Under the pieces are notes generated by a model, which saw nothing but the letters and a program-made list of their open reading frames with translations, was not told where the DNA came from and ran no database searches. Positions 10,764 to 14,553 of a stretch of 32,440 nucleotides of DNA are shown piece by piece. A program made the translations under genes and the position numbers. The DNA is from Methylococcaceae bacterium (GTDB lineage Bacteria; Pseudomonadota; Gammaproteobacteria; Methylococcales; Methylomonadaceae), in the NCBI GenBank assembly GCA_013141375.1, contig JABFRC010000012.1:1-32440 (forward strand), in the 5' to 3' direction. The number at the start of each line of letters is the position of its first letter. Position 1 is the stretch's first letter.

Positions 10764-11330
10764 TTAAACGCGGGACATGAATTTTCCGGTTTCGGTGTTG
10801 ACCTTCACCACTTCGCCGGGTTCAAGATATTCCGGTACCTGGATTTCTATACCTGTGGTCAATCGTGCGGTTTTGGTTCTGCCTGAAGCCGTTGCGCCTT
10901 TGATGGCTGGCGCGGTTTCAACGATTTCCAATTGCACGGAGCTGGGCAACTCGAGTCCTAGCGGGGCGTCGTCCACTAATAGCGCAACAATGCCTTCAAG
11001 TCCTTCGGTTAGATAACCAATCTGATCTTCCAGCTCCTCTCGGCCCAGCGTGTACTGGGTGTAATCTTCGGAATTCATGAAGATGTAGTTGTCGCCATCA
11101 ATATACGAAAACTGTACTTTGGCCCTTACCAAATCAGCATCCTTGAAAAAGTCATCGCCTTTTAACGACTCATCAAGCTTTTGCCCGGTCTTAAGATTGG
11201 TGAATCGAATTTTGTAGAGTGTAGCCGCACCACGCGATGACGGGCTTTTAACATCAACATGCTTTACTGCATGAGGTATTCCGTTGATCTCAACGACCAT
11301 GCCTCTTTTTAAATCACCTGCTTTTGCCAC
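10764..11330 (-). CDS. efpL: Elongation factor P-like protein EfpL (YeiP)
   Basis: Paralogue of EF-P, 188 residues with three beta-barrel domains. The loop VKSPSSRGAATLYK matches the EfpL/YeiP type (SPTARGAATLYK in E. coli) rather than EF-P. Arg33 occupies the position where EF-P carries its modified lysine. The C-terminal part ETAPAIKGATASGRTKTARL matches the family signature. EfpL is known to help ribosomes pass proline-rich stalling motifs. It is first in an operon with rlmG, so both products act on the ribosome. Confidence 0.93.
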   Translation of the reverse strand: MAKAGDLKRGMVVEINGIPHAVKHVDVKSPSSRGAATLYKIRFTNLKTGQKLDESLKGDDFFKDADLVRAKVQFSYIDGDNYIFMNSEDYTQYTLGREELEDQIGYLTEGLEGIVALLVDDAPLGLELPSSVQLEIVETAPAIKGATASGRTKTARLTTGIEIQVPEYLEPGEVVKVNTETGKFMSRV

Positions 11331-11376
11331 AAATATCTCCTGTTGCTTATTGTTTACTTCGATTTGAAAAAATATA

Positions 11377-11462
11377 GTAACTATTCAGCGTCTTTTTAAT
11401 CACTGGTGGTTTACTCCCTCTCCAGCAGGAGAGGGATCTAGTGCTTCGCGCTGAATAGTTAC
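11377..11462. repeat. 86-bp element with 14-bp terminal inverted repeats and internal hairpin
   Basis: Terminal repeats GTAACTATTCAGCG (11377-11390) and CGCTGAATAGTTAC (11449-11462) are perfect inverted copies. Inside is a perfect 9-bp stem, TCCCTCTCC (11415-11423) and GGAGAGGGA (11428-11436), with an AGCA loop. A related but incomplete copy lies at 1286-1331. It has no coding capacity. It fits a MITE- or REP-like non-autonomous element in the intergenic space upstream of efpL. Confidence 0.75.
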
Positions 11463-11574
11463 AAAATATTAAGATTGCCCGCAAAATTCGGGACTTGATT
11501 GTCATTATATCTTGGAACAGTGATCAATCGTCCGGACGATGTATGATGGCTTAAACAATTACCAGGCTTTTTTC

Positions 11575-12078
11575 ATGCTTGAATGGTCATACTCACAAAT
11601 TGATATTGTAAGGTCGCTGATATTGCTTCTGGCTGCGAATGGCGCGCCGGTGTTGGCAGTGTTGGTGTTTGGTAAGCATTGGAACTGGCCAATTGATGGG
11701 GGATTGATATTGCGCGATGGCCGTCACTTATTCGGCCACAGTAAAACGTGGCGCGGCTTATTGGCTGCCATCGTTTTGACCGCGTTAGTGGCATTCATTC
11801 TTAGTATAAATCTATGGACAGGCGCACTCTTCGGTCTGCTGGCCATGCTGGGTGATTGCCTCAGCAGTTTTATCAAGCGCAGGCTAGGGTATCCAACCAG
11901 TAGCCATGCCCGCGGATTGGACACCTTGACGGAGTCGATACTGCCCACCTTGCTTTTAAAACAGTCACTGGGGATCAACTGGGCTGATATTTTATGGCTG
12001 GCATTGATATTTTTTTTGCTGGAAGAATTTGTTTCGCCACTGCTCTATCAGTGGCATATTCGTAACCGACCGTATTAA
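11575..12078 (+). CDS. CarS-family (CDP-archaeol synthase-like) CTP transferase
   Basis: Multi-pass membrane protein, 167 residues from the ATG at 11575. I prefer that start because ACCAGG lies 8 bases ahead; an ATG at 11539 would add 12 non-conserved residues. Motifs are LFGHSKTWRG (52-61), GDCLSSFIKRRLG (93-105) and RGLDTLTES (113-121), the PF01864 pattern. Archaeal members make CDP-archaeol from CTP and an ether lipid. Bacterial members are less well characterised, and a diacylglycerol-type phosphatidate substrate is possible. The next two genes also belong to lipid-type families, supporting a lipid role. The exact substrate cannot be read from sequence. Confidence 0.75.
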   Translation: MLEWSYSQIDIVRSLILLLAANGAPVLAVLVFGKHWNWPIDGGLILRDGRHLFGHSKTWRGLLAAIVLTALVAFILSINLWTGALFGLLAMLGDCLSSFIKRRLGYPTSSHARGLDTLTESILPTLLLKQSLGINWADILWLALIFFLLEEFVSPLLYQWHIRNRPY

Positions 12079-12083
12079 TACTG

Positions 12084-12836
12084 ATGACTATTCCACGATT
12101 AAAAATATTAACGTATAACCTTCACAAAGGCTTTAATGCGAGTAATCGACGCTTTGTATTGCATCAGATCAAAGAAGCCCTAGTCGATACCAATGCCGAT
12201 GTCCTGTTACTACAAGAAATGCAAGGTGAGCACCAAAAACATCAGCGTAAAATTATCGATTGGCCAATTTGTTCGCACAGCGAGTTTATTGCCGAAGGCT
12301 GGTGGCCGTTTTATGTTTACGGTAAAAATGTCACGCATAGCGATGGTCATCACGGCAATGCCATTCTCAGTAAATATCCGATTGAAAGCTGGGAGAATAT
12401 CAATGTATCGCCTTACTCCTGGGCCAGTCGCAGTCTGCTGCATGCAGTTATTCGTCTGCCAATCAGCGAATTGCCTGTGCATGTCGTTTGTTTGCATTTT
12501 GGCTTGACTGGGGCGGAGCGCGATCGGCAAACCCAACAATTATGCGAGCGCATTGACAGCCATGTGCCGCATGATGCGCCCTTGATTGTGGCGGGTGACT
12601 TCAATGACTGGCGAGGTCGCGTTGAGCGGCATTTTCATGAGCAATTGGGTTTGCAGGAGGTGTTTCAGCAAACCCATGGACGGTACGCACGCACTTTTCC
12701 ATGCTGGCTGCCGATATTGACCATGGATAGAATTTATTACCGCGGTCTTTCACTCTATACCTGCGACCGACTTGCACATTCACCTTGGCCTGTTTTATCA
12801 GACCATGCACCGTTAACAGCTTCATTTACTTTATGA
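12084..12836 (+). CDS. Endonuclease/exonuclease/phosphatase (EEP) family protein, YbhP-like
   Basis: A 250-residue Mg-dependent hydrolase fold. Visible catalytic motifs are TYNLHKG (Asn12), LLLQEMQ (Glu45), a central HGNAILSKYP, HFGLTGAER, GDFNDW near residue 171 and SDHAPL near 239, all canonical for PF03372. No signal peptide is seen. E. coli YbhP, encoded next to cardiolipin synthase ClsB, is a relative. The position between a CTP transferase and a CDP-alcohol phosphatidyltransferase suggests that it cleaves a phosphate or phosphodiester in the same lipid pathway. It starts 5 bases after the CarS-like stop and its TGA overlaps the next ATG. Confidence 0.8.
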   Translation: MTIPRLKILTYNLHKGFNASNRRFVLHQIKEALVDTNADVLLLQEMQGEHQKHQRKIIDWPICSHSEFIAEGWWPFYVYGKNVTHSDGHHGNAILSKYPIESWENINVSPYSWASRSLLHAVIRLPISELPVHVVCLHFGLTGAERDRQTQQLCERIDSHVPHDAPLIVAGDFNDWRGRVERHFHEQLGLQEVFQQTHGRYARTFPCWLPILTMDRIYYRGLSLYTCDRLAHSPWPVLSDHAPLTASFTL

Positions 12837-13414
12837 AATTATCTCAATCCAGTCGCTGGACTTTACCCAATTGTCTGACCGGCTTTCGCTTTGTCGCTGC
12901 ACCCGGATTGTTATGGCTGGCATGGCAAGGGCAGGGGATAGGTTTTATGGTATTGCTCGCCCTTGCTTTTTTGACTGATGTACTTGATGGCTTTGTTGCC
13001 CGATTAACCGGTCAAGTGTCGGAATTTGGGGCTACATTAGATAGCTGGGCTGATGTGGTTAATTATTTAACCATTGCTTTGGGCTGCTGGTGGCTATGGC
13101 CGGAGATTGTTACTCAAGAATTACCTTATGTGGTGATGATTGTCGCTAGCTGCCTCTTGCCCGCAGTTGCCGGTTTCGCTAAATTTGGCAAATTCACCAG
13201 CTATCATACCTGGGGCGTTAAGCTGGCTGCAGCAGCAATGGGCGCAACTTTGTATCTGTTGTTCCTGGGAGGGCCAGCATGGCCATTTAGACTTGCTGCT
13301 GTGATTTGCATCTTGGCAGCCAGTGAGGAAATCGCGCTGACATTGTTGTTAGTTAAACCGGAATCCAATGTGCGCTCTATTTGGTTTGTATTGAGACGTA
13401 AGAAATCGACCTAG
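12833..13414 (+). CDS. CDP-alcohol phosphatidyltransferase
   Basis: Integral membrane enzyme of about 193 residues that would transfer a phosphatidyl group from a CDP-lipid to an alcohol. It has the complete signature D49xxD52G53xxA56R57x8G66xxxD70xxxD74 and several hydrophobic helices. The start at 12833 overlaps the EEP stop (ATGA); an in-frame upstream ATG at 12785 would overlap the EEP gene by about 50 bases. The acceptor alcohol (glycerol phosphate, inositol phosphate or other) is not predictable. The stop is inside a CTAG that also supplies the stop of the converging gene. Confidence 0.85.
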   Translation: MKLSQSSRWTLPNCLTGFRFVAAPGLLWLAWQGQGIGFMVLLALAFLTDVLDGFVARLTGQVSEFGATLDSWADVVNYLTIALGCWWLWPEIVTQELPYVVMIVASCLLPAVAGFAKFGKFTSYHTWGVKLAAAAMGATLYLLFLGGPAWPFRLAAVICILAASEEIALTLLLVKPESNVRSIWFVLRRKKST

Positions 13415-14553
13415 TGAGACATTATTTGATCGTAAACCTGCGCATAATCGGCAAGCATTCGGTTTAGGCTGAACACAGATTCGCAGCGACGTCTAGCGGC
13501 ATTTCCATGTGCTGTGAGCAGTTCAGGATGATCCAAATAGTATTTGATGGCTTGGCTCATTGCGACAGGATTTTGTTTTGCAATCAGTAGGCCGGTTTCG
13601 TTATTGATCACCAATTCCGGATTGCCGCCGACATCAGTGGCAATAACGGGTAGGGCAGTGGCCATGGCCTCAAGTATGGTATTGGATATGCCTTCATTGA
13701 TTGAGGGCAGTACAAAAATATCCAGCGTTCTCATTATCTCCGCGACATCACTGCGTTCTCCGGCAAACCAGACACTGTCGTTTAAATCCTTAGCATCTAC
13801 CATGGTGCGTAGTTTTTCTTGTAATACACCGGTACCCACCAGTACCAGACGCACCTTATCTTTCACTTCAGGATAGGTACTGACTAGATGAATAAAAGCC
13901 TCAACCAAGGTAATTTGATCCTTGACCGGATCTTGTCTGCCGACAGTGCCGATAATGGTCAGTTCCGGTGACCGAAATTCTAAAGGAAGCAATTCAAGAG
14001 GTGGTTCAGCGCTTAACTTAAAACGATTTAAGTCGACGCCATTGTAAAGTTGCGAGATTTTATAAGATGGCACTTGTATTTGTTGGCGCAGCCAGCTTTC
14101 CAGGTCTTTGGACATGGGAATATAGCGCTGTACCAGCGGTCGAAACAGTTTACGCAACAGCACATAACGCGGATTCGTGCCATCAACATCATCCAGATCT
14201 CTACCATGTTCACCGTGAATTCGGTGTTTTATACCAGCTAAAAAGCCCGGTAATTGAGCCTCCAAAGCTGATAAATTTCGGGTATGCAGAATATCAGGTT
14301 TTATTTTTCTAAGAAGCCGCCATAAGCGCAGATAAACGGCCAGATCCTTGCCTGGTTTTTTATGTAAACAATAGACGTCGACGTCATCTCGGGTGATACG
14401 TTCACGAAAGCTGGTGTAATCGGTCATGCAGATTACCGCATGGCGATACTTATCTGCAGGCAAGTGGTTGATTAAATTGACGACGCCATTTTCCAAGCCG
14501 CCAGTGCCCAGACGAAACAAAACATGGGCGATCAGAGGTGTGTCTGCTTTCAT
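13411..14553 (-). CDS. GT4 glycosyltransferase, PEP-CTERM/XrtA-associated (TIGR03088-like)
   Basis: A 380-residue family-1/GT4 retaining glycosyltransferase. It has an N-terminal Rossmann domain (HVLFRLGTGGLENGVVNL), a GTVGRQDPVKDQ hinge and the C-terminal E-x7-E donor site (EGISNTILE). The first part matches my memory of the sugar transferases that accompany exosortase A exopolysaccharide loci. Here the gene is the last of a five-gene minus-strand run rather than in an EPS locus. Its ATG overlaps the hemerythrin stop (ATGA), so it is translationally coupled. The donor and acceptor sugars are unknown. Confidence 0.8.
   Translation of the reverse strand: MKADTPLIAHVLFRLGTGGLENGVVNLINHLPADKYRHAVICMTDYTSFRERITRDDVDVYCLHKKPGKDLAVYLRLWRLLRKIKPDILHTRNLSALEAQLPGFLAGIKHRIHGEHGRDLDDVDGTNPRYVLLRKLFRPLVQRYIPMSKDLESWLRQQIQVPSYKISQLYNGVDLNRFKLSAEPPLELLPLEFRSPELTIIGTVGRQDPVKDQITLVEAFIHLVSTYPEVKDKVRLVLVGTGVLQEKLRTMVDAKDLNDSVWFAGERSDVAEIMRTLDIFVLPSINEGISNTILEAMATALPVIATDVGGNPELVINNETGLLIAKQNPVAMSQAIKYYLDHPELLTAHGNAARRRCESVFSLNRMLADYAQVYDQIMSH

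What the first reader, a model, noticed from the sequence alone, without database searches (positions are those of the whole stretch)
11575..13414. CarS-like / EEP / CDP-alcohol transferase cluster: candidate unusual phospholipid pathway
Three coupled genes pair a PF01864 CTP transferase (archaeal CDP-archaeol synthase type) with a complete-signature CDP-alcohol phosphatidyltransferase and an EEP hydrolase between them. Seen: motifs GDCLSSFIKRRLG, DxxDGxxAR...GxxxDxxxD, GDFND, 5-base spacing and an ATGA overlap. Known: CarS activates ether lipids in archaea, and CDP-alcohol transferases then add a head group. Inferred: a self-contained activation, transfer and dephosphorylation route (for example PGP-like to PG), possibly on a non-standard lipid.
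Basis: partly seen in the sequence, partly recalled or inferred. Interest (0 to 1): 0.7.

Follow-up and report, generated by a model that had tools for sequence, protein, structure and literature searches.

The report
Accessory phospholipid-synthesis gene trio in methanotrophs
Three neighbouring genes in a methane-eating bacterium form a conserved extra membrane-lipid assembly line (an activator, a head-group transferase and a hydrolase), whose transferase may be the missing maker of cardiolipin in these bacteria, although no enzyme activity has been shown.

Summary
In detail: a CarS-like CTP transferase (11575-12078), an EEP hydrolase (12084-12836) and a CDP-alcohol phosphatidyltransferase (12833-13414) lie in one tight operon. 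The linkage is conserved. Of 80 named transferase loci, 78 carry the hydrolase as neighbour and 56 carry all three. In the methanotroph family, CarS occurs only in genomes that have the transferase (58 of 58, against 0 of about 105). The same genome has cdsA, pgsA, pssA and pgpA elsewhere, so this is an accessory module, not the basic PG route, and nothing found points to ether lipids.

Across sampled Gammaproteobacteria the YbhP gene sits beside either a PLD-type cardiolipin synthase (11 of 48) or this transferase (11-12 of 48), never both. The window genome has no PLD-type cardiolipin synthase. Methylotuvimicrobium alcaliphilum 20Z, reported to make cardiolipin, has the hydrolase-transferase pair and no hit to the bacterial Cls model. 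Best reading: the transferase makes cardiolipin (or a close anionic lipid) from CDP-diacylglycerol that CarS helps to supply; YbhP's step is unknown. Genomic inference only.

The parts
11575..12078 (+). CarS-like (PF01864) membrane CTP transferase, 167 aa; in-frame upstream ATG at 11539
   Evidence: PF01864 55.7 bits; profile of the family finds solved Aeropyrum CarS 5guf at E 4.6e-13 with D41, K57-T58, GD94..SF.KRR and LD116 aligned
12084..12836 (+). EEP-fold hydrolase of the YbhP family, 250 aa, no export signal seen by inspection
   Evidence: PF03372 91 bits; 44% identity over 245 aa to E. coli YbhP; N12, E45, H138, D172, N174, D215, D240, H241 invariant in 68 aligned sequences; AlphaFold2 model pLDDT 92.5 matches EEP structures, best 4ruw Z 30.1
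12833..13414 (+). CDP-alcohol phosphatidyltransferase, 193 aa, subfamily with TSYHTWxVK and EE motifs
   Evidence: PF01066 76.8 bits; catalytic D49, D52, G53, A56, R57, G66, D70, D74 and Y124-H125-T126, K130, E165 invariant in 80 aligned sequences; model pLDDT 94.4, best structure S. aureus PGP synthase Z 16.9
12833..12836 (+). ATGA stop/start overlap between hydrolase and transferase
   Evidence: read directly; the pair is adjacent in 78 of 80 loci
11331..11574 (.). divergent intergenic region between efp (- strand) and the trio; a promoter is expected here but none stands out
   Evidence: promoter-like matches no more than in shuffles; efp identified at 10764-11330

Best explanation
The trio is an accessory phospholipid-synthesis operon of the bacterial inner membrane. 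Inferred steps: (1) the CarS-like enzyme joins CTP and phosphatidic acid to give CDP-diacylglycerol, adding to the supply from the housekeeping CdsA; (2) the CDP-alcohol transferase moves the phosphatidyl group onto an alcohol acceptor, most likely phosphatidylglycerol, giving cardiolipin (a eukaryotic-type, CLS_cap-like reaction), with another anionic or polyglycerol phospholipid as the alternative; (3) the cytoplasmic YbhP-type hydrolase acts on a lipid, intermediate or by-product common to both this pathway and the PLD-type ClsB pathway, so not specifically on PGP. Shown here: gene identity, intact catalytic residues, conserved linkage, optional CarS, and the two alternative partners of YbhP. 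Inferred: all substrates and products.
For: Linkage: hydrolase gene adjacent in 78 of 80 named transferase loci, all three in 56, including one rearranged locus where they stay together. In the methanotroph family CarS is found only with the transferase (58 of 58; Fisher p about 1e-32, not corrected for relatedness). YbhP link to lipids: in 48 sampled gammaproteobacterial loci outside the order, 11 YbhP genes adjoin a PLD-type Cls, 11 (12 with a looser limit) adjoin this transferase, none both; E. coli ybhP-clsB-ybhN. Transferase: best fold PGP synthase, the neighbour family of CLS_cap (PMC3378450), and across 80 members the lowest NCBIfam E-value is to NF053678, a cardiolipin synthase model of the same fold. 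The window genome's only two PF13091 hits are polyphosphate kinases. M. alcaliphilum 20Z (G159, identified by its plasmid) has the hydrolase-transferase pair, no TIGR04265 hit, and reported cardiolipin (PMC5802761, PMC9853399).
Against: The transferase is far below every NCBIfam equivalog cut-off, cardiolipin synthase included (41.6 against 240 bits). PLD-type Cls is rare in the whole order (24 of 234), also where the transferase is absent, so there is no anticorrelation across genomes. Many of these genomes carry other PLD-domain proteins, one of which could make cardiolipin; those of 20Z were not inspected. 26 of 48 YbhP genes have neither partner. Relatives on cyanobacterial plasmids sit in organisms not known (general knowledge) for cardiolipin. 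A second clade of this transferase sits in an unrelated-looking operon with a desaturase, so the acceptor may differ within the family.
Confidence: 0.4

Rival explanations
1. One reading: CarS makes a CDP-lipid, the transferase makes PGP from it and glycerol 3-phosphate, and the EEP enzyme dephosphorylates PGP to PG.
For: Closest fold is PGP synthase; a hydrolase next to a transferase fits transfer then dephosphorylation; the EEP fold includes phosphomonoesterases.
Against: pgsA and pgpA exist elsewhere; below the TIGR00560 PgsA cut-off (37 against 109); in a simple alignment the transferase lacks the GRE...LRE basic segment of the genome's own PgsA; YbhP also pairs with ClsB, whose reaction makes no PGP; known bacterial PGP phosphatases are PgpA, PgpB and PgpC, not EEP proteins (PMC11629553).
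Confidence: 0.15
2. The module makes a different phospholipid or phospho-lipid conjugate (another polyol, amino-alcohol or sugar acceptor, or a modified bacteriohopanoid or special acyl chain), and YbhP trims or recycles it.
For: The subfamily has its own invariant YHT...K and EE motifs and matches no named equivalog; a sister clade lies in a carbamoyltransferase / iron-redox enzyme / desaturase operon; relatives beside VTT/TVP38 membrane proteins.
Against: No positive evidence for any particular acceptor; YbhP's two alternative partners argue for a product shared with ClsB.
Confidence: 0.3
3. Archaeal-type ether-lipid activation: CarS acts on an isoprenoid or alkyl ether lipid.
For: PF01864 membership and alignment to solved CarS.
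Against: Below the CDP-archaeol synthase equivalog cut-off; no archaeal ether-lipid gene in the trio or among the neighbours examined; such CarS-like proteins occur in 68 of 370 sampled Gammaproteobacteria, for which ether lipids are not generally known. Archaeal ether-lipid genes were not searched genome-wide.
Confidence: 0.05
4. The EEP protein is a nuclease or repair enzyme that travels with the lipid genes by accident.
For: Fold matches include TDP2, APE1 and ExoIII.
Against: Pairing with one of two unrelated phospholipid synthases in about half of the sampled loci, kept even when the trio is rearranged.
Confidence: 0.07

Closest known systems
E. coli ybhP-clsB-ybhN operon
   Same: Same EEP hydrolase (44% identity over its length) encoded with a phospholipid head-group enzyme in one operon.
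   Different: The partner is a PLD-type cardiolipin synthase, not a CDP-alcohol transferase; no CarS-like gene; a YbhN membrane protein is present.
CDP-alcohol-type (eukaryotic-type, CLS_cap) cardiolipin synthase of mitochondria, actinobacteria and some proteobacteria
   Same: CDP-alcohol phosphatidyltransferase fold, motif and size; CLS_cap has displaced PLD-type Cls in some lineages (PMC3378450).
   Different: Sequence far below the NCBIfam cut-off; own YHT...K / EE motifs; activity unknown.
Archaeal CarS (CDP-archaeol synthase)
   Same: PF01864 family, catalytic residues and overall length.
   Different: Bacterial subfamily below the archaeal equivalog cut-off; likely substrate is ester-linked phosphatidic acid.
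E. coli ynbABCD
   Same: Another accessory pairing of a CDP-alcohol transferase with a CDP-diacylglycerol-synthase-like enzyme and a phosphatase.
   Different: Only remote similarity; CdsA-type activator and a different phosphatase.

Membership tests
CDP-alcohol phosphatidyltransferase (PF01066) | Pfam score over cut-off and D-xx-DG-xx-AR-...-G-xxx-D-xxx-D motif | tested here: met
   76.8 bits against 22; motif invariant in 80 aligned sequences
CDP-alcohol-type cardiolipin synthase (NF053678) | Score over the equivalog cut-off | tested here: not met
   41.6 against 240 bits, though it gives the lowest E-value over 80 members
CDP-alcohol-type cardiolipin synthase (NF053678) | Makes cardiolipin from CDP-diacylglycerol and PG | not testable with these tools
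   needs enzyme assay or mutant lipidomics
PGP synthase PgsA (TIGR00560) | Score over the equivalog cut-off | tested here: not met
   37.4 against 109.1 bits; the genome's own PgsA is elsewhere, next to uvrC
CarS-like (PF01864) | Pfam score over cut-off and conserved CTP-site residues | tested here: met
   55.7 against 22 bits; alignment to 5guf
CDP-archaeol synthase equivalog (NF003114) | Score over the equivalog cut-off | tested here: not met
   70.1 against 148 bits
YbhP / EEP (PF03372) | Full-length similarity to E. coli YbhP and complete EEP metal and catalytic residues | tested here: met
   44% over 245 aa with one gap; invariant residues; fold
ybhP-clsB type module | A PLD-type cardiolipin synthase as the partner enzyme, or at least present in the genome | tested here: not met
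   in the window genome only two polyphosphate kinases hit PF13091 and there is no TIGR04265 hit; genome 96% complete

The most novel reading that the evidence does not exclude
In many Gammaproteobacteria the YbhP-ClsB cardiolipin module has been functionally replaced by a YbhP-CDP-alcohol-transferase module, often with its own archaeal-type CTP transferase feeding it: an undescribed bacterial route to cardiolipin (or a cardiolipin-like lipid) that would explain how methanotrophs without PLD-type Cls make it, and would place the uncharacterised protein YbhP in cardiolipin metabolism.
Probability: 0.33. Interest if true: 0.7.

Novelty: new variant of a known kind. Interest (0 to 1): 0.55.

Why it matters
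It gives a testable candidate for cardiolipin synthesis in methanotrophs, whose stacked membranes carry methane oxidation; ties E. coli YbhP, for which the literature searched gave no function, to phospholipid metabolism through two unrelated partner enzymes; and suggests that CarS-like proteins are used by ordinary bacteria as an optional second CDP-lipid synthase.

Tried and rejected
Strict replacement of PLD-type Cls by the transferase across the order: rejected, PLD-type Cls is rare regardless (7 of 74 with the transferase, 17 of 160 without). Abundant ~540-aa PLD-domain proteins as PLD-type Cls: one inspected has two PLDc_2 domains, and the set does not reach the TIGR04265 limit used; their function stays open. 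Defence function: no PADLOC match. Phage origin: no phage record matches the transferase. Horizontal-transfer signature by base composition: the trio's GC and GC3 resemble its neighbours. Relation to E. coli ynbA/ynbB: only remote. Solved relatives of the EEP protein by single-sequence search: none; by profile and fold only generic EEP proteins, so its substrate could not be read from structure. Papers on a biochemical role of YbhP: none found in the searches made.

Full report
What is there. The window belongs to a Methylococcales genome of 3.9 Mb in 373 contigs, 96% complete; its same-genus relative G048 has a first contig of the same length (84,445) as a Methylococcaceae metagenome contig in the named set. 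Between efp (10764-11330, minus strand) and a family-4 glycosyltransferase (13411-14553, minus strand) lie three plus-strand genes with a 5-base gap and an ATGA overlap. They are a CarS-like protein (PF01864), an EEP hydrolase (PF03372) and a CDP-alcohol phosphatidyltransferase (PF01066), all well over the Pfam cut-offs.

Not the housekeeping route. The genome has one CdsA, a PgsA beside uvrC, a PssA, a fourth CDP-alcohol protein and a PgpA. So the trio is additional to ordinary PE and PG synthesis.

Conservation. In 234 genomes of the order, the transferase subfamily occurs in 74 and CarS-like proteins in 94. Within the window's family (about 179 genomes, counted from the handle ranges) CarS is found in 58 genomes, every one of which has the transferase; none of about 105 genomes without the transferase has it. 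Relatedness inflates the p-value, but the pattern is one-sided. In 80 named loci the order CarS-EEP-transferase on one strand holds in 55, one locus (L144) is rearranged with the EEP gene inverted, 22 have EEP-transferase only, and 2 have the transferase only, one at a contig end and one in another operon. The surrounding genes change from genome to genome. The EEP-transferase pair is therefore the core and CarS a frequent third member. Outside the methanotrophs the pair occurs in Methylophaga and relatives and in several unrelated gammaproteobacterial families.

The hydrolase is YbhP. It is 44% identical to E. coli YbhP over 245 residues with one gap. E. coli ybhP is followed by clsB and ybhN. 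In an even sample of 370 Gammaproteobacteria, 51 have a YbhP-family protein. In the 48 loci outside Methylococcales, a PLD-type cardiolipin synthase is adjacent in 11, the transferase subfamily in 11 (12 if a 773-base gap is allowed), four of these also with CarS, both kinds in none, and neither in 26. With about five CDP-alcohol genes per genome, chance adjacency would be under 1% per locus (rough estimate). YbhP thus has two unrelated alternative partners, both phospholipid head-group enzymes. This argues that its substrate is shared by both routes, and against a dedicated PGP phosphatase. No biochemical study of YbhP was found.

The transferase. All catalytic motif residues are invariant in 80 diverse members, together with a subfamily signature Y124-H125-T126, K130 and E165, with E166 nearly invariant. 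The AlphaFold2 model (pLDDT 94.4) is closest to S. aureus PGP synthase (Z 16.9, rmsd 2.4 over 158 residues), ahead of PIP synthases (Z about 12) and PS synthase (Z about 10). By NCBIfam the family is about equally far from several named enzymes and below all cut-offs; over 80 members the best E-value is to a cardiolipin synthase model of this fold. CLS_cap enzymes are close to PGP synthases and are known in some proteobacteria (PMC3378450). A simple alignment shows that the GRE...LRE segment of the genome's own PgsA is not conserved in the trio's transferase, which weakly disfavours a glycerol-phosphate acceptor.

Why cardiolipin. The window genome has no PLD-type Cls: its only two PLD-family hits are polyphosphate kinases. 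G048 also lacks one. G159 is Methylotuvimicrobium alcaliphilum 20Z, shown by an exact match of a stretch of its 128,415-base contig to that strain's plasmid of the same length. It carries the EEP-transferase pair, has no hit to the bacterial Cls model at E 1e-20, and is reported to contain cardiolipin, about 11% of phospholipids in a literature-compiled table (PMC5802761), rising with pH (PMC9853399). In mitochondria the CDP-diacylglycerol plus PG reaction makes cardiolipin (PMC8027125), and a second CDP-lipid synthase would serve exactly that reaction. Against this, PLD-type Cls is rare in the order whether or not the transferase is present, other PLD-domain proteins exist in many genomes including 20Z, and no activity is known. 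I put the cardiolipin reading at 0.4 and an unspecified other acceptor at 0.3.

The CarS-like protein. A profile of the bacterial subfamily finds the solved Aeropyrum CarS at E 4.6e-13, with the metal and CTP-site motifs aligned, so CTP transfer is likely. It is below the archaeal equivalog cut-off. Similar proteins are found in 68 of 370 Gammaproteobacteria, mostly without YbhP or the transferase next to them, so CarS has a wider role and was recruited here. Archaeal CarS selects against bacterial phosphatidic acid (PMC9385802), so whether the bacterial subfamily accepts it must be tested.

Verdict. Its pathway is replaced by an accessory, probably cardiolipin-type, module in which YbhP is a core member.

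Noticed in passing
L149, L151-L153, L155, L126 (genomes G146, G110, G112, G150, G053, Methyloprofundus): A sister clade of the transferase (100/99 support) is, in the loci read out, the last gene of an operon with a carbamoyltransferase, a haem-oxygenase-like iron redox enzyme and a fatty-acid desaturase: an apparently undescribed lipid or metabolite cluster in methanotrophs.
   Followed up: partly
L144:4676-7235: The trio is rearranged (EEP inverted) and a VTT/DedA-type membrane protein gene overlaps the transferase; an acyltransferase gene is nearby.
   Followed up: partly
L244, L245, L246: Distant relatives of the transferase on plasmids of Nostoc, Allocoleopsis and Thiothrix, one beside a TVP38 gene, one beside TnsA/Mu-type/TniB/TniQ transposition genes.
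   Followed up: partly
window 11377-11462: An 86-base palindromic element with 14-base perfect inverted ends (GTAACTATTCAGCG) in the efp-trio intergenic region; the end motif recurs once at 1318-1329 and in Methylotuvimicrobium loci L073, L239 and L242.
   Followed up: partly
L199, L201, L204, L205, L210, L215, L050: Elsewhere CarS-like genes lie tail-to-tail with a calcineurin-like phosphoesterase gene of about 315-340 aa in several families (family assigned on L215 and L050).
   Followed up: no
L004 (own genome, contig C57): A fourth CDP-alcohol protein (383 aa) followed by a YbhN-like membrane protein gene, with a sulfatase-like gene divergent to it: another possible lipid cluster (the two neighbours named by eye).
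   Followed up: no
L146:1526-3121: A 531-aa protein with two PLD domains; proteins of this size and hit pattern are common across the family but below the Cls model limit, function unknown.
   Followed up: partly
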